This document shows positions 4,155-57,299 of a DNA stretch of 64,000 bases, one piece after another (position 1 is the first letter of the stretch; every line of letters starts with the position of its first letter). The position numbers and the translations under genes are program-made. The notes below the pieces were generated by a model. It saw nothing but the letters and a program-made list of their open reading frames with translations, was not told the origin of the DNA and ran no database searches. Source of the DNA: Carettochelys insculpta (taxonomy: Eukaryota > Chordata > Testudines > Carettochelyidae); NCBI RefSeq assembly GCF_033958435.1, contig NC_134145.1, positions 37,227,501 to 37,291,500 on the forward strand, in the 5' to 3' direction.

Positions 4155-4588
4155 AGCTGTGTCTACATGGGCCCCCTCCTTTCAGAGAAGGCATGTTAAT
4201 GAGACACTTTGGAAGTTGTTAATGCGGTACAGACATGAATATGTAGTGCCGTATTAGCATAATGGCAGCTGTGCATGATTCACAAGTGCCGCTTTTGGAA
4301 CACTGCTGCCTGTGTAGACAGGGGCCTTTCCAAAGGACTCCCCCTGTTTCAAAAGCCCCTTCTTCCTAAAACCAAATAAGAAGAAGGGCTTTTGAAGTCA
4401 GGGTCCTTTCAAAAGGCCCCCCCGTCTACACAGGAGGTGGCGTTCCGAAAGCAGTACTTTCAAATTGTGTGCAGCTGTCATTGTGCTAATGAGGTGCTGC
4501 ATATTCATGTCAGTGCCTAATTAGCATCTTTGGAACTGCCTCATTAACATGCCCCTTATAAAAGGAGAGAGCACATGTAGACACAGCT
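4155..4588. mobile_element. 434-bp fold-back DNA element (GCATGTTAATGAG family)
   Basis: The two ends are inverted copies: AGCTGTGTCTACATG at the left and CATGTAGACACAGCT at the right. The symmetry continues inward (GGCATGTTAATGAG left, CTCATTAACATGCC right; CCTTTCCAAAGG and CCTTTCAAAAGG near the centre), so the whole element can fold on itself. There is no protein gene. The flanking triplets are ACA and CCA, a possible 3-bp target duplication with one mismatch. The arms resemble 53460-53697. Confidence 0.8.
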
Positions 4589-9902: not shown

Positions 9903-10584
9903 GGCTACGTCTACACGTGAAGCCTACATCGAAGTAGCCTATTTCGATGAATAACGCCTACACGTCCTCCAGGGCTGGCAACGTCGATGTTCAACATCGA
10001 CGTTGGGCAGCACCACATCGAAATAGGCGCTGCGAGGGAACGTCTACACGCCAAAGTAGCACACATCGAAATAAGGGTGCCAGGCACAGCTGCAGACAGG
10101 GTCACAGGGCGGACTCAACAGCAAGCCGCTCCCTTAAAGGGCCCCTCCCAGACACACTTGCACTAAACAGCACAAGAGGCACAGAGCCGACAACTGGTTG
10201 CAGACCCTGTGTCTGCAGCATGGATCCCCAGCTGCCGCAGCAGCAGCCAGAAGCCCTGGGCTAAGGGCTGCTGCACACGGTGACCATAGAGCCCCGCAGG
10301 GGCTGGAGAGACAGCGTCTCTCAACCCCCCAGCTGACGGCTGCCACGGAGGACCCCACAATTTCGACGTTGCGGGACGCGGATCGTCTACACGGTCCCTA
10401 CTTCGACGTTGAACGTCGAAGTAGGGCACTATTCCGATCCCCTCATGAGGTTAGCGACTTCGACGTCTCGCCGCCTAACGTCAAAGTTAACTTCGAAATA
10501 GCGCCTGACGCGTGTAGCCGCGACGGGCACTATTTCGAAGTTAGTGCCGCTACTTCGAAGTAGCGTGCACGTGTAGACACAGCT
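9903..10584 (+). mobile_element. 682-bp TIR element, copy 1
   Basis: It begins GGCTACGTCTACACGTG and ends CACGTGTAGACACAGCT, flanked on both sides by CAA (9900-9902 and 10585-10587), a 3-bp target duplication. It has the same length, 682 bp, as the copies at 15040 and 30403, and is GC-rich with many TCGAAAT, TCGAAG and TCGACGTT boxes arranged as internal inverted repeats. Two overlapping frames (about 9947-10264 and 10198-10563) are open in this and two other copies, but they resemble no protein and I do not annotate them as genes. Probably a non-autonomous Harbinger-like element. Confidence 0.9.
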
Positions 10585-12035: not shown

Positions 12036-14476
12036 ATTTAATTTAGGGCAACTTATTCTCATAGACAATTTGGTTTGTTTTATTGCAGAAGACCATCATT
12101 TTCTTGTGGTAAACAATTTTTGTAAAGCACAATAAATGTGGTTTTACCCATCAGGATTAGGAAGTTATCCCTTTGTTTATCAATCTAATTTTTATGGAAG
12201 TACTGGTTTAATCTAAGTTTGTTGCAAGAACCTCCCTCTTCCATCACGTTAGATACAGTCCATATTGCCAGATGTAGCCATTTTATATTCTTAACTGATG
12301 ACAAGGATGGGATATTTTTATGCTCACAGAAAAGATATTGTTAGATAAACATAAAATACTCTTTCTAGAAGGTTGCAACATAAAGTCATTTCTTAAGATC
12401 CAGAATGGTAATACACATGAACCAAAAATAGAGAAAGCAGGCTGCTCCCAAAACAGAGTCATGTAACTAACTATATATCAGTTCAAGATGGCTCTTCTAG
12501 TGCAGACTGATGGCAGAAAATCCAGATTTCATGTGTCCTGACCAGGCCTCCTGCCCTACTAGAAGGACAAGGAAATCCCTGAGAAACTTAAATTGTCACC
12601 TTTATAAATTTAAACAGTTTTCAGTACACTACATTATTAGATTTTAAATTTTATTGTAATAATTTGAGTGGGATATTCAAATTTAACTGAAGCATAGTTT
12701 TAAAGTAACAGCTTTTCTTGTCAGACCGAAAAGTTATTTAGACTGTATTCTTGAAAGGGACACATTCACAACCTCAAAGAAAGAGATTAAATTGGATGTA
12801 AGAATAGTACTAATTAGAGCTCCTTAAATGGTGTCTGTCAAATAAATGAATTTAAAAATTTTGCTTGGCTTCATAAGGATTAGTTGACATCACTCAACTC
12901 TGCCTATTTATAAATTGTTTCAGTTAACCATGTTAACTGAAAGAGAACTTTCCAACCCTTCAAACAAGATTCCTTTCCCATTCACAAAACAGTTTTCATT
13001 CTCTGATACAATACGGCAGGACTTACTTTATTTTCAAAAGTAGCAGGATTCTTTGATCTTGGCTCATTGAGAAAGAGATAGGCCCACTCCGAAGTATTCT
13101 GTCCCATGTCCCACCAACTCCAACCAGTAACTAAATCCATGTGCATCTCTACATAAATTTAGGAATGAGTGTTCGATTTAAATTTCCCTTAGGAAAGAAA
13201 TAAAATGTACAGCTTAAATCTGAATTGCTCATCTGCCCCTTTATAATGGGATTCAATAATGGTCTCCAGAGCAGGTAGCTATGCAGAATAACCCACTACG
13301 TCCTACCATACATAAGCACAATAGGATGTATTATGGGTAGAACTATAAATTCTTCTTTATGGAGAGGAGGCAAGATAGTAAATTCAAACCCTCATCATTA
13401 CTTTGACATGGCACTTGTGCTTTACAATTCCATAGCCAAATAAAACAAATTAAATAAATAAATAAAAATTACATAAAATAGCCACCATACAAGCTTTGAT
13501 AAGTATCCAAGTTCATTTTTTTACTAGAATGAACTGCTCTTTAGCGAGTTCACTGATTTATTCCAGCCATCTGTAGCAGTGTAAACAAAAGCTTGTCTCC
13601 AGAAATGCTTCATAATTTTTGGATGTAGCATGGACTAAAAATTTCAATATCAACATCATGTACAAAAAGTACAAGGGAAGAGAATACACATTTTCACACC
13701 ACAGATATATCTTAGATAATGGCAATCACAAAATTCAGACGCATTAAAAATAAAACATTCTTCTGGCATGGTGTAATACCATTCTATTTAAATGCCAGTA
13801 AATCTTTCTCTAAAATATTGTGGAATAACTTGGCACCCACTTCTTTCTGCCCATGGTAATGACACATTTCAGGCAGATACCATGTTGGTGATCTTGACTG
13901 TTTAAATCTGAGTACTAGCTTGATCTTGCTTGTGTTAAACTAGCATACTTTTCTCCATGGACACCTCTGTTGATCTGTCCACCTGCAGTTACACACTCTC
14001 CTGGCCCTTTTTCCCCAATGATACACTTTGCTTGCTGTGTTGCTAGAAAACAGGTGGTGAGGATATATAGCATATGTGTAATCAAACTACCACAAAGGTC
14101 TGATTTCCTTCAAAGGTACTGAGCACCTTCAAATGTTTTTGATGAGAGCTGGGGATATTTGGCATCCTTGCAACTCAGCCCCAATGTACTGTATATGTAT
14201 GAAAAATACATTAGGCTTTGTTTTAGAAATGCTAAGGAATAACTCAGTTACATAGAGAAAAAATTCCATGGAAGGGGTTTGGCCCAATGGTGACATGGTC
14301 CTTCCAAGTTTTCACAGTTATCCTATCAGGGATGAAGTAATTTGCCCTCTTCTCCCTATAGCTTGTGAAGCAAGCGGAAGGTGTGACCTACTTAGAGGAC
14401 CAAATTCTAATCTCCATAGGAAAAGTCTCATGGAGTTTGGAACTGTCATTATAGGCTGGTCCATTCATTCCATTTT
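12036..14476. other. Single-copy DNA, no gene seen
   Basis: Long AT-rich unique stretch with an (AAAT)n run near 13449-13467. No exon, RNA gene or transposon was recognised. Confidence 0.5.
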
Positions 14477-14811
14477 GGGTTGGTCTGCACTAGGAGTCAA
14501 TTTTGAAATAAGACCCTTTATTTCAGAATAAGAAGTAGAGCATCCACACTACCATGTTCATTATTTTGACATAACAGGCTGTTTATTTTGAAACTTGTGC
14601 TCCTGCTTTTTATGAGGAGTGATACTTTTTCTGAAATAACAGTAATTTGGATGCAGTGGTGCTCTTATTTTGAAATAATTGGCCTGTGGAGGCCTCTTGC
14701 AGCTGCAGCCCTGAGCGCTCTGGCCACAGCAGGCATCTCCACTGCTCCCCTCTCCCTGTGGAACTCCCAAAGGCCCATAAGGGGAGAAGGACTTGTCACA
14801 TGTGGCCAGCC

Positions 14812-16060
14812 ATGACAGCCCTGTGCAAAACACCATCCAAGGCCAGTACAAGTGACCCCAGCGTACCCTCTGATTTCTCAATGTCCGTCAGCATTCCTGC
14901 AGCTCCCATAACAGCCGCTGCCCAAGGATGCATGAGAGCCCTGGCTTGGGCTAGTGTGGAGATCCTGGACCTCATCAAGGTCTGGGGAGGAGACCAACCT
15001 CCAGGAGCTCCGCATCAGGAAGAGGAATGTGGACATCTAGGCTACGTCTACACGTGAAGCCTACATCGAAATAGCTTATTTCGATGAATAACGTCTACAC
15101 GTCCTCCAGGGCTGGCAACGTCGATGTTCAACTTCGACGTTGTGCGGCACCACATCGAAATAGGCGCTGCGAGGGAACGTCTACATGCCAAAGTAGCACA
15201 CATCGAAATAAGGGTGCCAGGCACAGCTGCAGACAGGGTCACAGGGCGGACTCAACAGCAAGCCGCTCCCTTAAAGGGCCCCTCCCAGACACAGTTGCGC
15301 TAAACAACACAAAATACACAGAGCTGACGACTGGTTGCAGACCCTGTGTCTACAGCATGGATCCCCAGCCACCACAGCAGCAGCCAGAAGCCCTGGGCTA
15401 AGGGCTGCCGCCCACGGTGACCATAGAGCCCCACAGGGGCTCGAGAGAGAGCGTCTCTCAACCCCTCAGCTGATGGTCGCCATGGCGGACCCCGCTATTT
15501 CAAAGTTGCGGGACGCGCAACGACTACACGGTCCCTACTTCGACGTTGAACGTCGAAGTAGGGCGCTATTCCTATCCCCTCATGGGGTTAGCGACTTCGA
15601 CGTCTCGCCGCCTAACGTCGAAGTTAACTTCGAAATAGCGCCCGGCACGTGTAGCTGTGACGGGCGCTATTTCAAAGTTAGTGCCGCTACTTCGAAGTAG
15701 TGTGCACGTGTAGACACGGCTCTACAGCCAGATCACTGCCAGCCTGCCTGACAAGTGGTACGCTGAGACCCTCAATCAGTGGTGGATGAAAATCAAGGAA
15801 TTGCAGGAGGCTGACCACAAGTCCAAGGAGCACATGGATGTTCTGATGAGGCACCGCACACCTCCTGCTACTACAGGTAGCTTGATGCCATCTTGAAAGC
15901 GGGGAGGCAATCACCTCCCCGTGCTGTCACCATTGAGTCCACCAAGGACACATCCCGTGTCAGTCTGCAGGAGTTTGGGGTGGCAGACAACAACGATGAT
16001 GAGGGTGAGGCCAGGCAGACGACCATGCCCACCAGCCCAGAGCTTCTTCTGACCCAGTAG
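14812..16060 (+). pseudogene. Myb/SANT-like DNA-binding protein of a Harbinger element (broken)
   Basis: The frame from ATG at 14812 reads into a Myb/SANT-like domain: ALAWASVEILDLIKVWG, then, after a shift, EETNLQELRIRKRNVDIY, SQITASLPDKW and WWMKIKELQEADHKSKE. This is the trihelical, tryptophan-bearing fold known from turtle Myb/SANT-like proteins, which in Harbinger elements bind the transposon ends and help import the nuclease. Four lesions are visible. There is a frame change near 14984-14990. The 682-bp element is inserted between the DI and YSQ codons (15040-15721). There is another frame change around 15850-15870, where CYYR and LDAILKAGRQS continue in a new frame. A TAG stop lies at 15878-15880, one base from CAG. 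The acidic tail ends with SPELLLTQ and TAG at 16058-16060. The pre-insertion product would have been roughly 190 residues, close to the second copy at 39495-40195. Confidence 0.75.
15040..15721 (+). mobile_element. 682-bp TIR element, copy 2
   Basis: The ends are GGCTACGTCTACACGTG and CACGTGTAGACACGGCT. The target duplication CTA is at 15037-15039 and 15722-15724. The element sits inside the Myb/SANT-like gene: the codons on each side join into one continuous reading frame if the element and one CTA are removed, so the insertion point is exact. It is the same length as copies 1 and 4. Confidence 0.93.
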
Positions 16061-17035
16061 TCGGCCCCCTCCCCAGGACATATCCCAGGCTTCCTCACTC
16101 CAAGAATGCAGAGCGGAGACCTCAGATAAGCTCCATAACTTTCCCTATTGACAAGCAGGGCAGATGACAGAATGTGGGAGGGTGCATGCTCCCTTCTTTG
16201 TCTACTAGGCCTGGAGGTCACGAAATAGCTCGTTCACACATCTGCACATGGAGTGCCAGTCCGGAGCACTCAGCTCCCTGAAGGTCTCACACAAGGACCC
16301 CTTGGTCCTTCCCATGGGTTCCTGGAGGGGCCTGCACCATTCCAGCCTCTGTGGTAGGATACTGTCTCACAACAAACCACCACTGAGTAGTCTGGGGTCA
16401 TGGACACACATAGCAATGCCGCTTATGACCCAGGGTCATCCCTGCACTCAGGCAGCATTTGATCCCAACCAAGTGCAGTGGTGCACAGGTGACTGATCTC
16501 ATACATGGGAACCTGCCAGGTGAGGAAGAAGAGGGGAACCCATTTGCCCTCTGTCTAACAAATGGTGTCTGCAGCTCACACACAACTCCTCCAACAGCAC
16601 CCAACCCCAAGTGGACAGGGATGGAAGTTCTCTCCCTGTGGGATGCCACAAGTGCCAGACCTGGCACTCACAGGACACAGAAGGATGCCAAGCTGCCCTG
16701 GCACATCACCCACCCCCCACTTTCAGGCTCCTGGCCTGGTCAGCACCTTCCCATGCCTGCCTGTCCCCAGGCCATGGGTGCTGCAATGTTTGGGATGTCT
16801 GTGCCCCACTGGCAAGTGCCTGCTGTCTAGGCAACATATGGCCTTGCTTGAAGCGTATCGCCATCATCTGAACTGAGGCTTTCAGAGTCATCTCGGAGGT
16901 CAGGGCTCGGCTTCATATATAGCATCTACTGTGAGGACTCGCATTGTAGCCTTTCTTCATAGCTGGGTGAGCTGCGATCTTGGGGTATCCCCAGTCTTGC
17001 ACACCATCTACCGTACTGCATGGGATCCACAGGCT

Positions 17036-17383
17036 GAAACACACTTGGGATGGCCTCATGAGGGAGCTGATGGCCTGCCTGAAGTCCCTTTTAGAGGGAC
17101 TCCAGGAGGAGCGCTGGAATCGGACTGCTGACCGGGAGCAGAGGAGGGCTGCCTGCAATAAGACCATGTTTTCCATCCTGACGTCAGTGACAGAGTGTAT
17201 GGCTTCCCCTCTGGGGGTCCCCTGCAGCTCCAAGGCCTCAGAACATGGAGCGGTAGGACCTCTAGGACAGCCAAAGCCTCCCAACAACCCGAAGGCAGGC
17301 CCCATCCCTGAGTCCTCCCTTTCCTCTTCCAGGTTCTGTTCCCAGTCCCTCCCCTGTTGTGTCCTGTCCCCACCCCCAATAAA
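17036..17383 (+). pseudogene. Coding-like helical segment and polyadenylation signal
   Basis: A plus-strand frame reads TWDGLMRELMACLKSLLEG, LQEERWNRTADREQRRAACN and KTMFSILTSVTECMAS, a charged helix-forming stretch. Turtle Myb/SANT-like proteins often end in a long Gln/Arg/Glu-rich helix of this sort, so this may be a second exon or the displaced C-terminus of the gene at 14812. AATAAA follows at 17378-17383. The link between the two pieces is inference; 16061-17035 between them has no recognised coding. Confidence 0.45.
17378..17383 (+). promoter_or_regulatory. AATAAA polyadenylation signal
   Basis: AATAAA lies just after the helical coding-like stretch and is followed by a GT-rich stretch (GTTGTTCC). 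About 30 bp further on, TTTATTG on the plus strand gives an AATAAA on the minus strand, as expected for two convergent genes meeting tail to tail. Confidence 0.5.
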
Positions 17384-17539
17384 GACTCCAGTTGTTCCAT
17401 GCATGATGATTTATTGTTTGCTGTACAGGGGAGGGGAGAAGGTGGGAAAGGAGAGCATGGGAAGGGAGGGGTGGGGGAAGACAGGCACGCACACAGAATG
17501 CACAGGCCCCTTGTGACACAGGGAAGAGTCTCAGAACTG

Positions 17540-17850
17540 GCCTCACTATGACTTCCTCGAGGCCTCTTTGACAAGCACAGCCCCTTAGTGTGCTCCCAGA
17601 TGGCACTGGCATCCAGCTACTTGTACTCCCTGGCCTCAGCCCTCTACCCTGGCAGAAACATCTCCCCCTTGGTCTCACATATGTTGTGGAGCCCACGAGC
17701 CCATGTTTGCATGCAGCTCTGGCTCCATGTTGTGCATGCTGTGGCATCTGCAAGGGCAACCAGAGCACTGGAAGTTGGGTGCCAATTGCATCCCATTTAT
17801 GTCCTGCATTGAAGAGGCAGTGGTGGAGTGGCTTGTGAGATGAGGCCATA
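17540..17850 (-). pseudogene. C-terminal remnant of a Harbinger DDE nuclease
   Basis: Read on the minus strand, the segment contains GLHNICETKGEMFLPG (LHNICE at 17674-17691), then a stop, then RAEAREYK, a second stop, and LDASAIWEHTKG. The LHN(I/L)xE motif close to the end of the protein is the hallmark of the Harbinger/HARBI1-type DDE_4 nuclease, following the last catalytic acid. Upstream, a FNAGHKW stretch and a VALADATAC stretch lie in shifted frames and resemble the preceding part of the domain (normally FNA...R and LDV). The catalytic residues are not preserved. The copy is convergent with the Myb/SANT-like gene, the usual arrangement. Confidence 0.65.
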
Positions 17851-18111
17851 CACAGGAACTCCTGGAAGCAGGCACTGGAGCTTGCCTGACCCACAGAAAA
17901 TACCCACTCTCCTGGTGCCTTCCCCAAAACATTTCCAGGGGTTCCGAATTTGAGGCAGGCTCCACTCCAGAAGGAGGTGCTATTTCAAAATAGTTCTGCC
18001 TTGTTTCAATACTTCCCCTTTGTGTGGACATGCTATTTCAGTTTAGTTATTTTGGGAACTATTAACTCTATTTTAGTTATTTCAAACTATATTCTTAATG
18101 TAGACATGGCC

Positions 18112-19082
18112 TATGTGTGGGAATAGTGGGAATAGGAGTAGGTAAGAAGGTAAGAGAATGGGGACCTTATCAGACACGTCAAGGGGCCTTCAGGTTTCAA
18201 GTGATGTGCTGGTGAGACAACTAGCCACCACTGCCCATGATTATGGTGCACCAATCCAACCATGCAGTACAGGGCTTCCTTCAATTTATACTCCAGTCTT
18301 ATTAGAAAAGCAAATGAAAGACACCTTGGATTAGGTCAGAACTGGAACATTTATTCAGGTAAATATTCAGAAGTGATGCCCTTACCTAGCTCATATGTAG
18401 CCAGAATAAAAGTCATCTGCATCTTCCAAGCCAGAGACACACATGGGGAGTTCACAAATAGGAACAGCTCTGAAAGACGCAGACATCTCATTGTTTGCAA
18501 CAGATCACCACTATACATATGACCAGGGACAAAAGTATTTAGGATTTTACTGAGCCCAGAATTCTGCAGTTTTAGTGGGGTCTGCAGATTAATAAAATTA
18601 AACAAAAATGCAGGACCTGAACTGATTGTTTATATTATTTGGAAATTAGTGTTGGTACTCTCTGCAACCAGAGTTCAATTGAACTTGATTGTGTTGGCTT
18701 TGCAAACAGCTCAGAAAATAAGAGCTTTTGACAAAAATGGCATTTGCAGTGCACTACTATTTCTGATTACCAGACAGCCACTTAATAAACAAGTTCTTTG
18801 CTTTCAAAGCATCTTCCCTTTTTCCCCAATTTCTAGATCGGAGAGATGACAGAAATACAATGCAGTTGCTTCTAATTTACAATATTCCTTTATAACTGCA
18901 ATTAACTCTTTGTATCTCAGTTACATCCAGAAGCTCTCATATGGTTTTTCATGAATTGACACCTCAGCCTTACACTGAGATAATGACCAGATCAGTTTTA
19001 GCTTCAGAAAGGAAGTAATGTTATTTTTTTCCTAAGAATACTTTTCAAATAAATTTAACTATTACTCAGGATTCTTTGTAAT
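18112..19082. other. Single-copy DNA, no gene seen
   Basis: AT-rich unique sequence. Short open frames on both strands (for example 18262-18522) have no family likeness. Confidence 0.45.
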
Positions 19083-22122: not shown

Positions 22123-22561
22123 AGCTACGTCTAGACTGCCCCTCTCTTTTGAAAGGGGTATGCAAATACGGTGGATCAAAAATGCAAATGAGGAACTGAT
22201 TTGAATATTCAGTGCACCATTTGCATATTAGCCACTTACTGTTCCAGAAGTGCTCTTTCCAAAATGCAAAACAGCCATGTACACAGGGTTCCTTCGAAAG
22301 GAAGCCCCACTTTCAAAGGTACCCTTCTTCCAGAAAAAAAATTAGGACGAAGGGTGCTTTATAAAGCAGGGGGAGGGCTTCCTTTCAAAGGAACCCCCTC
22401 TAGATGGCTGTTTTGCATTTTGTTTGAAAACAGCACTTCCAGCAAGGGACTACCATTATTCAAATGAGGCACTGAATATGCAAACCAGCACGTTATTTGC
22501 ATTTTCAATCCACTCCATTTGCATGCCCCTTTGGAAAGGGAGGGGCAGTGTAGACATAGCC
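22123..22561. mobile_element. 439-bp fold-back DNA element with TCC duplication
   Basis: AGCTACGTCTAGACTGCCCC at the left is mirrored by GGGGCAGTGTAGACATAGCC at the right. TCC at 22120-22122 is repeated at 22562-22564. The arms stay symmetric inward: TATGCAAAT, AATGCAAATGAGG, GAATATTCAGTGC and, around the middle, TTCGAAAGGAAGCCCC with its mirror GGGGCTTCC-like arm. No gene. The half element at 38486 and element A at 46794 are similar in style. Confidence 0.85.
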
Positions 22562-23777: not shown

Positions 23778-24487
23778 AGCCGTGTCTACACGTGCACGCT
23801 ACTTCGAAGTAGTGGCACTAACTTCGAAATAGCGCCCATCACGGCTACACGTGTTGGGCGCTATTTCGATGTTAACATCGACGTTAGGCGGTGAGACGTC
23901 GAAGCCGCTAACCCCATGAGGGGATGGGAATAGCGCTCTACTTCGACGTTCAACGTCGAAGTAGGGACCGTGTAGTCATTGCGCGTCCCGCAACTTCGAA
24001 ATAGCGGGGTCCGCCATGGCGGCCATCAGCTGAGGGGTTGAGAGACGCTCTCTCTCCAGCCCCTGCGGGCTCTATTGTCACCATGGCCAGCAGCCCTTAG
24101 CCCAGGGCTTCTGGCTGCTGCTGCTGCAGCTGGGGATCCATGCTGCAGGCACAGGGTCTGCAACCAGTTGTCGGCTCTGTGGATCTTCTGTTGTTTAGTG
24201 CAACTGTGTCTGGGAGGGGCCCTTTAAGGGAGCAGCTTGCTGTTGAGTCCGCCCTGTGACCTTGTCTGCAGCTGTGCCTGGCACCCTTATTTCAATGTGT
24301 GCTACTTTGGCGTGTAGACATTCCCTCGCAGCGCCTATTTCGATGTGGTGCTGCACAACGTCAATGTTCAACATCGACGTTGCCAGCCCTGGAGGACGTG
24401 TAGATGTTATTCATCGAAATAGACTATTTCGATGTCGCCATATCGAAATAGGCTACTTCGATGTAGGCTTCACGTGTAGACGTAGCC
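23778..24487 (-). mobile_element. 710-bp TIR element, copy 3 (reverse)
   Basis: Reverse-oriented copy of the 682-bp family, starting AGCCGTGTCTACACGTG and ending CACGTGTAGACGTAGCC, flanked by TAT (23775-23777 and 24488-24490). It is 28 bp longer because a TATTTCGATGTCGCCATATC block near 24422-24450 duplicates part of its end region. The antisense frame seen in the other copies (MTLSAAVPGTL) is open here, but the 105-codon frame is not. Confidence 0.9.
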
Positions 24488-30402: not shown

Positions 30403-31084
30403 GGCTACGTCTACACGTGCACGCTACATCGAAATAGTCTATTTCAATGAATAACGTCTACACGTCCTCCAGGGCTTGCAACATCGACGTTCAACTTCGA
30501 CGTTGGGCAGCACCACATCGAAATAGGCGCTGCGAGGGAACGTCTACACGCCAAAGTAGCACACATCGAAATAAGGGTGCCAGGAACAGCTGCAGACAGG
30601 GTCACAGGGCGGACTCAACAGCAAGCTGCTCCCTTAAAGGGCCCCTCCCAGACACAGTTGCACTAAACAACACAAGATCCACAGAGCCGACAACTGGTTG
30701 CAGACCCTGTGCATGCAGCATGGATCCCCAGCTGCCGCAGCAGCAGCCAGAAGCCCTGGGCTAAGGGCTGCTGCACTCAGTGACCATAGAGCCCCGCAGG
30801 GGCTGGAGAGAGAGCGTCTCTCAACCCCTCAGCTGAAGGCCGCCATGGCGGACCCCACTATTTCGATGTTGCGGGACGCGGATCGTCTACAAGTGCCCTA
30901 CTTCGACGTTCAACTTCGAAGTAGGGCGCTATTCCCATCCCCTCATGGGGTTAGCAACTTCGACGTCTCGCCGCCTAACGTCGATTTCAACTTCGAAATA
31001 GCGCCCAACACGTGTAGCTGTGACGGGCGCTATTTCGAAGTTGGCGCTGCTACTTCGAAGTAGCGTGCATGTGTAGACGCGGCC
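30403..31084 (+). mobile_element. 682-bp TIR element, copy 4
   Basis: The ends are GGCTACGTCTACACGTG and CATGTGTAGACGCGGCC, flanked by CTA at 30400-30402 and 31085-31087. It is inserted in the CR1 RT coding region, which reads through when the element is removed. Exactly 682 bp, as in copies 1 and 2; conserved inner boxes include CTTCGACGTTCAACTTCGAA and its mirror, and GCGCTATTTCGAAG. Confidence 0.93.
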
Positions 31085-46689: not shown

Positions 46690-46793
46690 ATACTCCTGTG
46701 CAGCACTTGAAATCTCGAAGTAATTAACAAATATGGACCAGTGTCATTATCCTCATTAAACATCAGGGAAACTCAGTCATAGAGAAATTTAGT

Positions 46794-47482
46794 GCAGCTG
46801 CATCTACACGAGCAAGTTCTTTCAAAAGATTTTTCAAAACAAGGGGGCTCTTTTGACAGATCCAATGGGGCGTCTACACACAAAAAGCATTATTTTGAAA
46901 GTAAATCGAAAGAATGTGGCACTCCTTTCAGAATTGCTCTTAATTCCTGTTTCAGGAAGGCTGTTTCTATAAATGGCCCAAAATATGCTAATGAGGCATG
47001 GATGCAAATTCCCCGTGCCTCATTAGCATAAGGTCACATGATTTAGAGTCTGGAAGATGTTCTTCCGGACTTCAAAAAGCTGTTTAGAAGCACGGCCCCC
47101 GGGGGGGGGTCTTCCGGAAGGAAGTCTTTCTTCCAGATGCCCCCTCTTCCCAAAAATTTTCAGGAAGAAGGGGCATCCGGAAGAAGGACTTCATTCTAGA
47201 AGCTCCCCTGGGGGCTGCACTTCTAAACTGCGTTTGGGAGTCCAGAAGAACAGTCTTCTGGACTCCAAATCATATGACCATATGCTAATGAGGTGCAGGG
47301 AATTTGCATCCACGCCCCATTAGCATATTTCGGGCTGTGTATTACCATGCCACTTTCGAAGAAAGTGTCCTGTGTAGAAATGGCCATTGTGTGTGTGCAC
47401 ACGCTCTTTTGAAAGAAGTTCTTTCAGAAGAGATCTTCCAGAAAGGCTTCTTTCAAAAGATCTCTGTAGTGTAAACATAGTC
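46794..47482. mobile_element. Fold-back DNA element A, about 690 bp
   Basis: GCAGCTGCATCTACACGAGC at the left; TAGTGTAAACATAGTC at the right, with AAGTTCTTTCAAAAGAT mirrored by GGCTTCTTTCAAAAGATC. Long internal symmetry: ATATGCTAATGAGGCATGG left, CCATTAGCATATTTCGGGC right, and AAGTCTTTCTTCCAGATGCC against GGCATCCGGAAGAAGGAC. AGT at both sides. Confidence 0.75.
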
Positions 47483-47485
47483 AGT

Positions 47486-48263
47486 ATGTCTACACAGCAG
47501 TTATTTCAAAACAACGGATGTTATTTCAAAATATCTTTGCAAGTGTCTACATGACGCAACTGCTATTTTGAAATAAATCCACCTCTTTGTACAAGGAATA
47601 GCCCCTATATCAAAATAGAGCCTGTTTTGAAATAAGCCATAATGGCCGTGTCTACACTAGCCCCAACCTTTAAAATGGCCACGCAAATGGTCATTTCGAA
47701 GTTTACTAATGAAGCGCTGAAATGCATATTCAGCGCTTCATTAGCACGTGGGCGGCCACGGCACTTCGAAATTGACGTGCCTCGCCGCCGCACAGCTCGT
47801 CCCAACAGGGCTCCTTTTCGAAAGGACCCCGCATGCTTCGAAGTCCCCTTATTCCCATGAGCTCGTGGGAATAAGGGGACTTTGAAGTAGGCGGGGTCCT
47901 TTCAAAAAGGAGCCCCGTTGGGACGAGCCGCGCGGCGGCGAGATGCGTCAATTTCAAAGTGCCGTGGCCGCCCGCATGCTAATGAAGCGCTGAATATGCA
48001 TTTCAGCACTTCATTAGTAAACTTCGAAATGGCCATTTGCGTGGCCATTTCGAAGTTTGGGGCTAGTGTAGACATAGCCAATATGTCCAATGATTCTGTT
48101 TCAAAACAGGCTAGTTGTGTCTGGACGCACTATTTTGAGATAATGCTCAGCTATTTCAAAATGCATGTTGTGTGTAGCAGCATTATTTCGAAATAAGCTA
48201 TTCTGGAAAATCTCTTCCGGAATAGCTTATTTTGAAATAACATTACAGTGTTGACATAGCCTG
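47486..48263. mobile_element. TIR element B, host of the fold-back at 47644
   Basis: Left ATGTCTACACAGCAGTTATT (preceded by TCAGT) and right AATAACATTACAGTGTTGAC followed by ATAGCCTG are worn inverted copies. Runs of TATTTCAAAA and TTTTGAAATAA fill it, the same style as the 14477-18111 transposon. Its first few bases are missing or shared with element A. Confidence 0.65.
47644..48079. mobile_element. 436-bp near-perfect palindromic element
   Basis: GGCCGTGTCTACACTAGCCC left, GGGGCTAGTGTAGACATAGC-C right, target duplication AAT (47641-47643 and 48080-48082). Both arms carry TTTACTAATGAAGCGCTGAA or its mirror, GCATATTCAGCGCTTCATTAG, GGCGGCCACGGCACTTCGAA and AGGACCCCGC; the centre is near 47862. 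No gene. The relative at 53999 has the same order. Confidence 0.92.
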
Positions 48264-48360
48264 AGTGATCTGCCCAAGCTCACGCAGCAAGTCCATTGCA
48301 GTGTAGAAATACAGCAGAGCCTTTTAACTCCACATTCTGTGCTCTAGCTACTGCTGCTGC

Positions 48361-49500
48361 TTTTGCCTTTGAGATCTTGACATGTATGATATATACCAAC
48401 TTCTGTTACATCTCTGGTCATTTCTGTGTCTGGTTTCACTAACTTAACATTATTTGCATTGTAAGGTGAAATTCTGTGCTAAAATTCAGCGGATAGGGAC
48501 TGCTGGCAGTTTTCCTATAGATGTGTCTTTGATGGAAGGAACAATTCTATAATAAGCCCATGATGAAAAACCCATCAATTGACTTAGTACCACATTGCCA
48601 TGGCAACAATGTAATGTTAATGAAATTGTGACAGTTTATGGAACTTCATAAAAGGGGCTGCCTAAAAGAAGGAATCTGACTGGTCATCAAATATTTCAAA
48701 CTGTGGTAATGATATAACCATATGCATTGTGACTTGTTAGTGTAATTTAAATACATTTCTTTTTGCAAGAACAATGGGACCCTATAAGAAGTGAAATTAC
48801 ACAGTAAAGCCTGTTCTTTTAAGTGCTTGGTGGCAGATAGACTTCAGCTTTGTGCCCTTTCCTTCCCCACTCCATAAGAATTATGAATGTTGCTCAAAAA
48901 TTAGACAAAATCTTTTCAAATTTGTCTGAGGTCCCTCTTTCCCAAACACAACCCACTCTTCAACTGCCCTGTCAGCCAATTCTCTGTGCCAGGCTTTTAT
49001 CCCTGGAGGCAGTCTGCTCTTCCATCTAAAGTAATAAGAGTAATTTGGCTACAAATACTGATCTAGAGAACCAAGCTTTCTGTGACTTGATTAATTCCTA
49101 GCAGATGGAAGCCAAGATGCTCTCCTTTCCCCTCTCTGTTCCCTTCCTTTCTTTCCATCTCTCCCTTATTTTTGGGAGGCGGTTACGGGAAAATGAATTA
49201 GATGGATAGATAGATGAAGAATGAGTATCTCTTGGCACAACCACACATCTCTTGATATGTTGTTGTTGCATTTTTGTCATTACAGAAATTATAAAATAGA
49301 TTATCTAGCATTTTATCACATTATGTATATAGATTACCACTGGATAGAGTTGTTGAGACATTTTGTATGGAAACTTTTAATCAAAAATGCTGGTTTGTCA
49401 CAATCCTAATATTGTTTGCAGATATGTATCAATTTTGACAAGATTCTGTTGGTGGTAGCTCAGTGATCTTTGTGTCCCTCTACTTTCATGCCTCACCTCC
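48361..49500. other. Single-copy DNA, no gene seen
   Basis: Unique sequence with a small (GATA)-like run near 49200. Nothing recognised. Confidence 0.45.
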
Positions 49501-50800: not shown

Positions 50801-52782
50801 AATTTGCTCCTGATTTTGAATCTCTACAATACTCGACCAGAAGTAAAGAGGAGTGTTGAAAATGTCCATGGCAGGAAGCTGTGAAATAATGTAAGAAACA
50901 AAATCTTGTAGTGAGCACGCATTCACTTTCCAAATGAAACATACAGCTTAGCTATGTGTATTCTTCATATGACAGTGAATTTTACTCCAAATGTCTGAGC
51001 CCACAAACACATATTTAACAATAATAATATGGGTAAATTAAGTAATACATAATGTATATTAATATTGCTCCATTTGGTAACAGCTGGGTCCAGAACCTAT
51101 TAAAGTCAATGTGAGTCTTTCCATTAGCTTTAATGGGCTTGGATCAGTCCTTTCTACAGGTTCTTTTAAAAAGCTGGAATATTGTGGAGGAGTTGAAAAT
51201 GGATGATGTTACTCCAGCTTTGGTATCTCTCAGGCTTGTAGGAAAGATGTCACTGAATTTGTGAGCTGATAAAAATAATTTAACTTAATATCTATTTTGG
51301 TTGGATGGCAGTTTTATTAAGCAGAACCAACAGCCACCATTATTCAGGGTTGTAACTAGCTCATTAAAATTATCTCATTTTCCCTAATTTTAATTTAACT
51401 TTAAGATTAAGCCTTACTTGGATTGCTAAAATGGTTCCAGTTAGGCTTTTTAACACTTTAAATACTATGAAAGTGTAAGTCTTTGTAAAGTTAAGTGCAA
51501 TATTGCTGTTTGCTTGCTGTTAAAATGCTGCTAACGTTAGAGCCTTTAGAAGGCATTTAGGTGAAGTTTCATACAGTACAATTTAGGAATTACAGCACCA
51601 CCTTTAATTGCTTATTGCCTTTGATGCAACATTTCTAGGCCCTTAGTCTCACAAAATGTAAATAGATGATGATGAATTGCTGCTTTATTTCCAAGTCTGC
51701 GTATATACCTGTTTTAAAAAGAACTCAACAAAGCATCTTGTCAAAGGCACTGATGAAGAAACCTGACAGTAAGAAATATTTCTCAGACATCCAGTGACAG
51801 AGATGAAGGCACCAAGCATATTAAATTATCCTGTAATGAAAATATGATGGCAAACTGTGGCATCTAAGCAGATGTTAGCAGGATGTTATAGATGCTAACC
51901 CTTACCTAACAGGCTTAATGTTTGGATCATTCTCAATGTCCAAAGCAATTAAGCTAGCATGAATTCTTTAAATGTACTGTATTTAACATAAACAAAGTAA
52001 AGATAATATATTTACCAAAGCATGCTGGAGATAGGTCTACCTGTGATGAGCCTAAATGTCTTTGGATGTACCTTGAACAATCCTAAATACTTCTTGGGCT
52101 GTGTCTCGTATCCTTCCACAGAGATCAGAACAGCAATGTGGAATAATATCTTGGCCGAACATTTTGCATGTATGTCAGTCTTCCCTATAAATAAGTGACT
52201 GCAATTTCTGTAATGCAAAACAACACCAATTGCATAACTATTTTATTGCCCATGCCAGCATTGTTTACATTAGCAGATTTTGGGGCTTGCCAATTTAAAA
52301 GATATTTTTAAATGCATGACCCATAAGGAAAGAAAGAAAGAACCCCACATTAACCATTTAATATTGACAGACACATTCTTTGCAGGATAGTATGCAATAA
52401 ATTAGAGTTCTAAAGGCTTTGTTTACCATAGGATATCATTATATGTAGTTGTGAACCACAAAAAAAGGATTTTTCTTTATTTAATATTCCCCAGAAATTC
52501 TCTAGAACTGTACACAAAGTTAGATGCTTTTTAGGAGAGCATCCTATTTATGAAATATTTTTTCTTTAAATTCTGATCCCTTTCTAGTCAGCTGCAGTAT
52601 TTTTATTCAGCTATCAGGCTGTGCAGCGCAGTGTAGAAAAGTATTAATTAAGCTTTTACCCAAAGATAATTTGTAAGTGTAGTTTACTATCACAATAGTT
52701 TCAGCCATTATGGTCCCACTAGAAAGTATGACTTGCAACATCTTACATTATTCATGTTATCCCTATACTGGTGTCACTGTAA
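50801..52782. other. Single-copy DNA, no gene seen
   Basis: Long AT-rich unique stretch with a (GAAA)4 run near 52330. Nothing recognised. Confidence 0.5.
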
Positions 52783-53062
52783 GGCTATGTCTACACTGTA
52801 ACAAAACTTTGAAATGACCATGCAAATGGCCATTTTGAAGATTACTAATGAGGCGCTGAAATGCATATTCAGCGCCTCATTAGCATGCCACTGGCTGTGG
52901 CTCTTTGAAATTGCTGCTTTTTGCTGCCTTGCGGCTCATCCAGACAGGGGTCCTTTTCGAAAGGATCCCACCAACTTTGAAATCCCCTTATTCCTATCAG
53001 CATTTCAGCACCTCATTAGTAATCTGACCATTTCGAAGCTTTATTTCAACATAGATATGGCC
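52783..53062. mobile_element. Deleted copy of the palindromic element
   Basis: GGCTATGTCTACACTG left, AACATAGATATGGCC right; left half carries ATTACTAATGAGGCGCTGAA and CATATTCAGCGCCTCATTAG as in 47644-48079, but most of the right arm has been lost (280 bp remain). Flanking TAA and TAG. Confidence 0.8.
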
Positions 53063-53775: not shown

Positions 53776-53998
53776 TGGTGTACAGTAGTGTAATCTCATC
53801 AAATTCCACAAACTAGGTGAGGCTAGTAATTGGATGGGACACCTCTGATGAACATGAGATACTGTAGGAAGTAGTGCTGGTGATGAGTCACTTTATGACA
53901 CTCCCCTGACTAGTCGGTAGTACAGGGCCAATGCGTCAGCATGCTAACAGTGAGCCAGTCTGTGGCTGTGCTGACTTGAAGATAAGGCCCAACACAAG

Positions 53999-54433
53999 GG
54001 CCGTGTCTACACTAGCCAAAAACTTCGAAATGGCCATGCAAATGACCATTTTGAAGTTTACTAATGAAGCGCTGAAATACATATTCAGCGCTTCATTAGC
54101 ATGCGGGTGGCCACGGCACTTCAAAATTGACACGGCTCACTGCCGTGCAGCTCGTCCACACGGGGCTCCTTTTCAAAGGACGCCGGCTACTTCGAAGTCC
54201 CCTTATTCCTATCTGCTCATGGGAATAAGGGGACTTCGAAGTAGCCAGGGTCCTTTTGAAAAGGAGCCCTATCTGGATGAGCCGCGCGGTGGCGAGCCAC
54301 ATCAATTTCAAAGTGCCACAGCCGCCCGTATGCTAATGAGGTGCTGAATATGTATTTCAGCACTTCATTAGTAAACTTTGAAATGGCTATTTACATGGCC
54401 ATTTCGAAGTTTGGGGCTAGTGTAGACATAGCC
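53999..54433. mobile_element. 435-bp palindromic element, second full copy
   Basis: GGCCGTGTCTACACTAGCC left, GGCTAGTGTAGACATAGCC right; the same arms as 47644-48079 with scattered differences. Flanking AAG and TAG. Open frames inside follow from the palindrome and are not genes. Confidence 0.9.
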
Positions 54434-57299
54434 TAGGTTCTAATCTAGTGAGAGACTTAAAAATTCCATGTTATTTTCACCAAATATTAAACCCTAGGGT
54501 TTCTCTTAACTTCTGACTGGGGCTATGAGAGTACGTAGCTGCTTAAATATCCCAGGTAACCTCCCTTCTATATTGCACTGTTTTCTTCACTCCCTAAAAT
54601 GTGACATGGTGTTGCTGCCCACAGTTAAACAGCTACTCCATCTCACCCAGATGTGCTGCATTTCAGTGTTGGGCGATGTTTTTCCTGTGCAGAGTTTGTG
54701 AAGTGCTTTGGGGTGTGGTGGTGTGAAAAGCATTACATACTACAATATATGGGGCTCAATTTGTTCAGGACTCTGCTCAGCGTAGCCTGTGGTGGAGGTC
54801 TCTGGTGAGAGAGCAGGGACATAGTCTGCCAGAGGAAAAGGATGCAATGGCTGAAAGCCTCACTTATACCCTGGAGATAATAAAGAGTCAGTGGAATCCA
54901 AAAGGTGGGAGACATTTAGACAGCTACAGAGCAGCCTTATTTAGAGCTTCTCTTTAGTGACTCCCATCTTTTCGATCCCCTGATCTTGGGCCAGCCAGGG
55001 ACAAGTGACACAGAGAGGCTTTAGGGTGACATGGATATTAATATGTGAAAGCATGAAGGTTAGCTGAGAGCAAAGGAGAGCTGGCCATACCGTGGGTGAG
55101 GTGGTGATGCTAACTTCGGGGTGAGAAAATACAAAGGTGGGCAGTGAATACAGTGAAGGTATAGATACACCCTGGTGAATTCTAAAAAGGGAATAGGAAA
55201 AAGCAGGAAGTGAAACTGTCTAAAACATAGAACAAAATCCTGAGCAGTTGGGATAACAGCAATAAATGACATGCACAGTGCTGAGACATCACTTCTGGGT
55301 AGATAAGCTGGGTATCTCAAATAAACCTGTGAATCAGATGTTCAAGGCATAATCTAGCCCACATAAATCCTAAGCCTGTGTGTCTTTGCAAAGCTGATTT
55401 TCATAAACGGGGAAATCAATCTCTAAAACTGTATTATAAATGTTGGGTCCAATCTTTGGGTGCTAAAGCTCCACTGAGGCTAATAGAATTATGCAGATTT
55501 ACATTAGCTGAGGAGCTCACCTGTCCCACAGACATATGGGAAATCACCTGTGTCCAGTGGTGAGAACTGAGTTTCGAGGCATAAGGAAACAGACAGCATT
55601 AGTGAGCTGCCCTTATTCTTAATGCTGTTACAACGTATCTACATCACAGTTCAAAAGTGTGATAAATTTCTCCCTTGAAAACGGTGCATGAAGAAATAGC
55701 TGTATTGCTCTTAAACTATTCACACAGATACAATGCTAGGCTCTTTGGTTCAGCTTCTCTTTGTATAACATGCTTGCACAAACCAACACCATTTGCCTCT
55801 GTGAGAATCAGGACTGAGCTACAAAGAGAATAATAGATGGTCTGCACTGATATACTCAGAAATAATTCTAGTGATGGTTTCTCCTTCCTCTTCTGATGTA
55901 TGGTGTCACTGGACATCAATATTTTCTACTCTGTGTGACTTCAACTAATTGTTTTTGTAATTTAAGACTATATAAATCCAAGAAAAGAATTTTATTATGT
56001 TGAAAATGTTGAAATTATCCCACCAATAGCAACAAAGCAATTGTTCATTTTCTGACAAAAAACTAACATGAAACTGTCTATTGTTGGGACAGATTAAAAA
56101 TTGTAGTTTTTTCTAATGGTAATCTGTCTATCTATCTATCTGTCTATTTAATCAAGCTTCTTTAAAGAAGTTGCAGTGAGTCATCCTGATGTGAGTTTAT
56201 GATGACATTTAAGGCCTTTACACAATTGTGACCCTTTGTTATTTGTCTGACCATTGTGATTTATTACACAAGCAACATAACACCCTTGTCCTTCCATAAT
56301 GATAACCACATCTGTTCTCAAGACTGTCTCATCACAAGATGTATTCAAGTGGTTGATTTCATCTTGAAGTGTGTGGCTCCAGAAGAACCTTTAGAGAATT
56401 TTGTCACCTAAAATCCAGAATTGAAATTGAAACCCAATTTCACGAAGATATCCAGGCTCTGACAGGATCCCTCTGACTAGAACTTAGGAGCGGGGTGGTA
56501 TCTGTGATTGCTGTGACCTTATTTTGATTTTGTTCTTTAATTTCAGACTGGACAGAACCAGCTAAATTTTCTGCAGCATTAGCGATAAAAATTAGTGGCA
56601 CAGTTTTGACTTCTAACATGCACATCAAGATGAACTCCGTGGTGATAAACAGGTTTCAGTCACTAGCTTCATTTACTAAAGATGAAACCAAAAGCTCAGC
56701 AGTCTACATACATTCTCCTGCCAAAAACTGAACAATTAGTAAACAATAGTTTTTCATTAAAAATTAGTATAGTGATATTGTGGCATCTGAAGGAGCATGA
56801 CAGGCCCAGTAGCACTCTAGGCATTCAACATCAGATGAATTAACAGGAATGAATGGCTGAATCTGTGGGCTCCATCATCCCACTAAGGACATGTATGTGC
56901 GATAAATGAGGAGTCAGGAAATCATGGTACAACCACAGCTGCAGGAGTTCTTCTGAAACCTTTTCAGCCTCTCTATAGCCCTGTAGCCTGTTGGAACACG
57001 TTCTGTATCTGCACCATCCTCTGAACATTGTCAGTGTTCAACAAATAGCCTACCCTATACACAGGGCTACATTCACAGGCATTGTGGCTGCTAGCCAGCA
57101 AAGCGTTGTTGTGGCCTGCCTGTGCAAAGGTTACCATCCAGGTTGGCACAAGCAGTCTCCACAGGGCTGATTGTGTGTGTGCTTAAGTATCAAGCTTGAA
57201 AATGATAGTGATAGCAAATCATGCCTTTACTTGGAAAATCCAGCCTAAGCATGTACACTGAAGACGCAAAGCTCACAGGACAGGGTGGGAGGATAGAAC
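54434..57299. other. Single-copy DNA, no gene seen
   Basis: AT-rich unique sequence with a (CTAT)n run at 56124-56147. No exon recognised. Confidence 0.5.
56124..56147. repeat. (CTAT)n microsatellite
   Basis: Short tetranucleotide run, CTGTCTATCTATCTATCTGT. Confidence 0.9.

What the first reader, a model, noticed from the sequence alone, without database searches (positions are those of the whole stretch)
14477..18111. A two-gene Harbinger relic with ends like the local short elements
Seen: worn terminal inverted repeats in the GTCTACAC style, a Myb/SANT-like domain on the plus strand, and a convergent minus-strand LHNICE tail with polyadenylation signals facing each other. Known: PIF/Harbinger transposons carry a Myb/SANT-like protein and a DDE nuclease, both needed to move. 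Inference: this is a fossil of an autonomous parent for at least one of the short element families (the TTTGAAATAA style, element B).
Basis: partly seen in the sequence, partly recalled or inferred. Interest (0 to 1): 0.75.

Follow-up and report, generated by a model that had tools for sequence, protein, structure and literature searches.

The report
Broken Harbinger transposon, nuclease core lost
This is an old, dead copy of a two-gene cut-and-paste transposon of the PIF/Harbinger kind in a probable turtle genome; its nuclease core has been deleted and a much younger short element has landed inside its DNA-binding gene, so it is an ordinary fossil.

Summary
In detail: worn ends at 14477 and 18111, a plus-strand Myb/SANT-like gene, a minus-strand LHNICE tail, facing poly(A) signals. 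The window copy alone gives no DDE or Myb hit; its relatives settle the kind. Genome copies, mostly at 66-76% identity, carry about 1 kb exactly where the window jumps from LHNICE to the 3' end. Pieces of it hit DDE_Tnp_4 and match turtle HARBI1-like proteins; Myb pieces hit Myb_DNA-bind_4. So it is PIF/Harbinger, but the window copy has lost nearly the whole nuclease, and a 682-bp short element (15040-15721, CTA duplication) splits its Myb gene. That element belongs to a younger Harbinger family: a two-gene 4754-bp copy with the same ends lies in L049. 'Parent of element B' is weakly supported: short derivatives with this family's ends exist elsewhere (L053, L056), and one short window element matches the end profiles weakly. 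The TTTGAAATAA style is perhaps CpG-decayed TTTCGAAATAA. New member of a known kind.

The parts
14477..18111 (.). Worn PIF/Harbinger element, family 'E' of this report; flanks TTT (14474-14476) and TAT (18112-18114)
   Evidence: Tips and flanks read; relatives
14477..14511 (+). 5' terminal inverted repeat GGGTTGGTCTGCACTAGG...TTTTGAAATAA
   Evidence: same tip in relatives
18077..18111 (-). 3' terminal inverted repeat (read on minus) GGCCATGTCTACATTAAG...TTTGAAATAA
   Evidence: same tip in relatives
14950..15036 (+). First half of the Myb/SANT-like domain (SVEILDLIKVWG, then EETNLQELRIRKRNVDI in the next frame: frameshift at about 14990)
   Evidence: translation; relatives' equivalents
15037..15724 (.). 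Nested young short element of family 'N' (15040-15721, 682 bp) with 3-bp duplications CTA at 15037-15039 and 15722-15724; splits the Myb gene
   Evidence: absent at this place in L029, L035, L040, L041, L043
15725..15893 (+). Second half of the Myb/SANT-like domain (SQITASLPDKWYAETLNQWWMKIKELQEADHKSKEHMD)
   Evidence: no Pfam hit alone
15960..17155 (+). Rest of the Myb-gene side, matched in most of the fetched relatives
17378..17383 (+). AATAAA poly(A) signal of the Myb-side gene
17410..17415 (-). AATAAA poly(A) signal of the nuclease-side gene
17632..17691 (-). LHNICETKGEMFLPG*RAEA: C-terminal remnant of the HARBI1-like nuclease, equal to residues 347-366 of P0001, with one stop
17692..17706 (-). 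Deletion junction: relatives hold about 1.0 kb here (1020 bp L031, 977 bp L034, 998 bp L045) with the DDE domain
17706..18111 (-). Nuclease-side terminal region, upstream of the lost nuclease start

Best explanation
The region is an old non-autonomous copy of a PIF/Harbinger DNA transposon. The parent family had two convergent genes: a Myb/SANT-like DNA-binding protein and a HARBI1-like DDE nuclease (shown through relatives). In this superfamily the two proteins act together on the element's ends, and the nuclease excises and reinserts the element with a short target duplication (established knowledge of the superfamily, not shown here). This copy lost about 1 kb from just upstream of the nuclease start to the end of the DDE domain (shown by comparison), so afterwards it could move only with helper proteins (inferred). 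Later a 682-bp short element of a different, younger Harbinger family inserted into its Myb gene, duplicating CTA (shown; the order in time between deletion and insertion is inferred from the age of the families). The copy is now inert (inferred).
For: Relatives: 56 matches in the own genome with 40 of 335 candidates scored. Of 20 fetched relatives, L031, L034, L044 and L045 continue across the window's junction with 977-1798 extra bases. DDE_Tnp_4: 6 of 6 nuclease fragments from 5 relatives at E 0.0027 or better, 3 of them above the curated cut-off; the window's own piece has none. A fragment from L034 found 14 proteins, 14 of 14 with turtle names and PF13359. P0001 matches the window only at residues 347-366 with E below 0.05, but L034 at 38-399 and L032 at 74-360 and 344-402. 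Myb_DNA-bind_4: of 7 relatives' pieces, 3 at E 2.2e-5 or better (2 above cut-off), 2 weak, 2 none. Nested insertion: identical 3-bp flanks and continuous relatives.
Against: The window copy gives no DDE or Myb Pfam hit of its own (7 pieces; 1; 1). Its flanks TTT/TAT are not a perfect 3-bp duplication; of 5 family copies whose two flanks I could read by eye, only L053 has identical ones (TAA/TAA). The inverted repeat alone is not rare (22 of 5000 random pairs as good). A profile of the 3' ends found only the window's own 5' end among nine 5' ends in the right orientation (E 6.7e-4); the reverse test did not run, so beyond the tip the two ends differ.
Confidence: 0.94

Rival explanations
1. The element is the autonomous parent, now worn, of the window's TTTGAAATAA-style short elements. 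Its Myb protein and nuclease would have recognised and moved short elements sharing its ends.
For: Short derivatives with both of this family's ends and no coding match exist: L053 and L056, 2 of 10 three-prime-end loci examined. The window element at about 47482-48261 matches the 5' profile at 47499-47634 (+) and the 3' profile at 48104-48258 (-) in proper opposed orientation; 12-mer block shuffles of 46701-48400 reached 20 bits with the 5' profile in 1 of 100 and 17 bits with the 3' profile in 0 of 100.
Against: The window copy lacks the nuclease. blastn of the whole element finds no short relative in the window apart from the nested family. L053 and L056 match the window only at this element's own ends and, through an insert in L056, at other repeats. 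The profile scores are low, and the 5' profile also matches the same region on the other strand (47395-47532, E 4.5e-6) and its own opposite strand at 14511-14685, which points to a shared AT-rich motif. The flanks of the 47.48-kb element (AGT and TGA, read) show no duplication.
Confidence: 0.25
2. Only the Myb-side gene and the ends belong together; the LHNICE tail is a chance match or comes from a separate Harbinger insertion.
For: The tail is only 20 residues with one stop.
Against: L031 and L044 have both ends, Myb side, LHNICE and DDE stretch in the same order, L034 and L045 the same without the 5' tip. The tail was matched at the same place by 12 of the 14 turtle proteins (the rows for P0008 and P0009 fell in the part of the output that was cut; P0014 only at E 0.019).
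Confidence: 0.02
3. The Myb or nuclease part was co-opted as a host gene here.
For: Domesticated HARBI1 and Myb-like pairs exist (PMC9710019, passages read).
Against: Frameshift and a 682-bp insertion in the Myb domain, a stop in the nuclease tail and loss of the nuclease core.
Confidence: 0.01

Closest known systems
PIF/Harbinger (PHIS superfamily) two-gene transposons; HARBI1-like proteins of turtles
   Same: DDE_Tnp_4 nuclease and Myb_DNA-bind_4 protein, convergent, inverted repeats with mostly GG-starting tips
   Different: Window copy lacks residues 1-346 of the nuclease and its Myb gene is split; target duplication not clearly TWA
NuwaII group of PHIS (C|TNA|G target, GG tips, one turtle listed; PMC4482050, abstract, part 1 of the results and passages read)
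   Same: GG tips; element length of the same order
   Different: Only one E copy with a perfect duplication (TAA, which fits TWA and TNA alike); not decidable
Family N of this report: the 682-bp short element and its two-gene 4754-bp relative in L049
   Same: Convergent Myb and DDE genes, GTCTACAC in the tips
   Different: Different subterminal sequence, nuclease matched in two stretches with a likely intron between, younger (four window copies differ by mean K2P 0.083 against 0.415 for nine E copies)

Membership tests
PIF/Harbinger | DDE_Tnp_4 (HARBI1-like) nuclease | tested here: met
   Relatives: 6 of 6 fragments from 5 loci, 3 above cut-off; window copy itself: a remnant of 20 residues only
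PIF/Harbinger | Second gene with Myb/SANT-like domain | tested here: met
   3 of 7 relatives' pieces at E 2.2e-5 or better, 2 above cut-off, 2 of 7 none; window pieces none
PIF/Harbinger | Terminal inverted repeats starting with G or A | tested here: met
   Window arms; tips of relatives read by eye; profile cross-test weak and half of it did not run
PIF/Harbinger | 3-bp TWA target duplication | tested here: inconclusive
   Family E: 1 of 5 copies read by eye at both ends has identical flanks, TAA; window TTT/TAT
PIF/Harbinger | Mobility needs both proteins | not testable with these tools
   PMC9710019 passages; no experiment here
NuwaII (PHIS) | C|TNA|G target | tested here: inconclusive
   Same 5 copies of E; family N, 16 copies, has TNA in 1 of 16
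ISL2EU | Second gene with YqaJ domain | tested here: not met
   Second gene is Myb-like; no YqaJ hit in the Pfam scans made. The AT duplication was not tested
Family N, for the nested 682-bp element | Same ends as a two-gene element, and 3-bp duplications | tested here: met
   L049 matches pieces of nested 2-353 at its left end and 364-686 at its right end, 85-97%; 16 of 16 paired-end copies have identical 3-bp flanks

The most novel reading that the evidence does not exclude
Turtle Harbinger families of very different age share one tip (GTCTACAC) and subterminal motifs centred on TTCGAA, which would be the binding sites of their Myb-like proteins. CpG decay turns TTTCGAAATAA into TTTTGAAATAA or TTTCAAAATAA, so the 'TTTGAAATAA style' is the aged form of the 'TTCGAAATAG style'. 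In addition, family N makes 3-bp duplications that fit none of the target classes stated in PMC4482050 (16 of 16 identical 3-bp flanks; TWA 1, TNA 1, CWG 0, ANT 1, any-W-any 14), a relaxed target choice that would help explain its spread.
Probability: 0.35. Interest if true: 0.45.

Novelty: new member of a known kind. Interest (0 to 1): 0.3.

Why it matters
It fixes what the locus is: an old deletion derivative of a PIF/Harbinger family, with a younger family nested inside. The useful by-product is the pairing of an abundant 682-bp short element with a two-gene relative that has the same ends (L049), which makes the question 'which proteins moved it' directly testable, and a simple possible explanation (CpG decay) for why short elements in this genome seem to come in two styles.

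Tried and rejected
Rfam on the window: no match at the gathering threshold. Search of solved structures with one nuclease fragment: none. Paper searches: I recognised no paper naming this turtle family in the listings shown; two turtle or tortoise genome papers and one turtle horizontal-transfer paper hold no 'Harbinger' in the main text. This does not show that the family is unlisted: Repbase and Dfam could not be searched. I first scored duplications of family N with a start wrong by four bases (1 of 16) and repeated it with the right start (16 of 16). One half of the cross-test of end profiles failed because a file was not yet written and was not repeated. A preference of family N for old Harbinger copies was considered (insertions inside E copies in the window, L044 and L049) and is not claimed: no density control was made. 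Dating in years was left out for want of a rate.

Full report
What was checked. The window lies in an unnamed 2.18-Gb genome of 134 contigs (G000:C9:37227501-37291500). The 14 proteins found with a nuclease fragment of a relative all carry turtle names, so the genome is probably a turtle's; that is an inference.

The observation. The two tips lie at 14477 and 18111. The arms 14483-14511 and 18077-18105 are 76% complementary over 29 nt; an equal or better alignment score came from 22 of 5000 random pairs of window pieces and 39 of 5000 shuffles. The flanks are TTT and TAT, two letters of three alike. The poly(A) signals face each other at 17378 (plus) and 17410 (minus). LHNICE is at 17674-17691 on the minus strand. 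Pfam finds neither DDE_Tnp_4 nor a Myb domain in the window's own seven pieces.

Relatives settle the kind. A search of the own genome with 15730-18111 gave 56 matches with 40 of 335 candidates scored; besides the window itself they are 66-76% identical, but for one short match at 81%. I fetched 20 regions picked from that list. Chained blastn shows copies that run from the 5' end through the Myb side to LHNICE and on to the 3' end: L031 and L044, and L034 and L045 without the 5' tip. Where the window passes from 17692 to 17706, they hold extra DNA: 1020 bp in L031, 977 in L034, 998 in L045, 1798 in L044, the last including a nested family-N element of 711 bp. L032 has 1179 bp up to a later point of the 3' end, and L047 3301 bp, part of it not identified. 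L038 and L039 have other internal deletions. The rest of the 20 show the ends, the Myb side or the nuclease in part.

The extra DNA is the nuclease. Of six stop-free fragments taken from five relatives (L034, L032, L037 twice, L044, L047), six match DDE_Tnp_4 at E 0.0027 or better, three above the curated cut-off. In L037 the three catalytic positions read GAIDG, LSDAAY and VVECAF; in L044 the second has become LSNAAY and in the L034 fragment it is missing (which residues are catalytic is recalled). The turtle protein P0001 (403 aa, named putative nuclease HARBI1) matches L034 at residues 38-399, and in pieces L032 (51-402), L045 (32-403) and L036 (49-400), but the window only at 347-366 (weaker window matches at E 0.098 and above are taken as chance). 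So the window copy has lost the nuclease from before its start to the end of the DDE profile; only the tail remains, with a stop in it.

The Myb side. Of seven pieces from relatives, three match Myb_DNA-bind_4 at E 2.2e-5 or better (two above cut-off), two weakly, two not at all; the window's piece does not. In the window the domain is cut by a frameshift at about 14990 and by a nested element at 15040-15721. L029, L035, L040, L041 and L043 run across this place without it.

The nested element belongs to a second Harbinger family, called N here. Four copies lie in the window (9903-10584, 15040-15721, 23778-24487 minus, 30403-31084). In the genome search, 39 of the 40 scored candidates (of 5452) are this element at 96-97%, the fortieth being the window itself (these are best hits). 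In L049 the same ends bound a 4754-bp element with a HARBI1-like nuclease on one strand (P0001 53-151 and 149-399, two stretches without stops in the matched parts), a Myb-like gene on the other, and CTT on both sides. Frames from it hit DDE_Tnp_4 (1e-38) and Myb_DNA-bind_4 (1.3e-12). It sits inside another copy of family E: E coordinates 15736-17152 lie on one side and 17230-17534 on the other. Of the copies of family N with both ends in hand, L049 included, 16 of 16 have identical 3-bp flanks; 1 fits TWA, 1 TNA, 0 CWG, 1 ANT, 14 have A or T in the middle. Target duplications stated for PHIS groups are TWA, AT, ANT, CWG and TNA (PMC4482050: abstract, part 1 of the results and passages read).

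Ages, relative only. Nine copies of E differ pairwise by K2P 0.415 on average over 15958-17115 (36 pairs). The four window copies of N differ by 0.083 on average (6 pairs). By divergence the E family is roughly five times older, consistent with N nested in E.

Is E the parent of short elements? Ten loci holding the 3' end were looked at (L052-L061, chosen from the 40 matches). Two (L053, L056) are short elements with both E ends and no coding match, each with a further insert; four (L052, L057, L059, L060) have nuclease matches beside the end; four (L054, L055, L058, L061) could not be told from the 1.0-1.5 kb in hand. In the window, profiles of the E ends match the element at about 47482-48261 at both ends in opposed orientation, weakly (E 2.3e-6 and 7.5e-5); the 5' profile also matches that region on the other strand (4.5e-6) and its own opposite strand, so shared AT-rich motifs play a part. 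In 100 block shuffles of 46701-48400, 1 reached 20 bits with the 5' profile and 0 reached 17 bits with the 3' profile; the reversed window gave nothing above 5 bits. I take this as a sign of distant kinship, not of parentage. A further short element at about 47644-48079 is nested in it, with AAT on both sides (read).

The motif. In the E ends, sites of the form ATTTNNAAAT read TG 13 times, CA 8, TC 1 and CG 0; one aligned column pair has 5 TG and 4 CA among 9 copies. Mixed TG/CA columns counted under a CG ancestor number 14 and 12 at the two ends, against 0 to 8 for five other transition mixes; counted under a TA ancestor they number 15 and 13, so the count itself does not tell CG from TA. CpG decay is the likelier reading, not a proof. 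The four N copies in the window carry TTCGAA two to four times each. That these are Myb binding sites is an inference; for zebrafish Harbinger3_DR the Myb-like protein binds a 9-bp subterminal motif (PMC9710019, passage read).

A census of all nucleases was not obtained: the family search did not complete. The P0001 search scored 103 of 70511 candidates and returned 130 matches; of 27 two-stretch copies of the L049 type, 23 have no stop in either matched stretch.

Verdict. An ordinary fossil of a known kind.

Noticed in passing
G000:C2:280419117-280420199, C4:121395864-121396943: Two HARBI1-like nuclease matches in one uninterrupted frame without stops, 69-70% identical to P0001, the best of the own-genome search.
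   Followed up: no
G000:C36:53558-54670: HARBI1-like match in an open frame of 593 aa without stops, 51% to P0001; may be a host gene or a recent element.
   Followed up: no
G000, 27 two-stretch matches listed: 23 of 27 copies of the L049 type have no stop in either matched stretch, which suggests that this family was recently active.
   Followed up: partly
window 47482-48261: Short element with TTATTTCAAAA-type ends holding a second short element (about 47644-48079, flanks AAT/AAT).
   Followed up: partly
window 4155-4588, 22124-22560, 46976-47335, 53993-54434, 52782-53002: Further self-complementary or related short elements, most with GTCTACAC-like tips.
   Followed up: no
L049 3431-8184: Two-gene family-N element inserted into an E-family copy with a CTT duplication.
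   Followed up: yes
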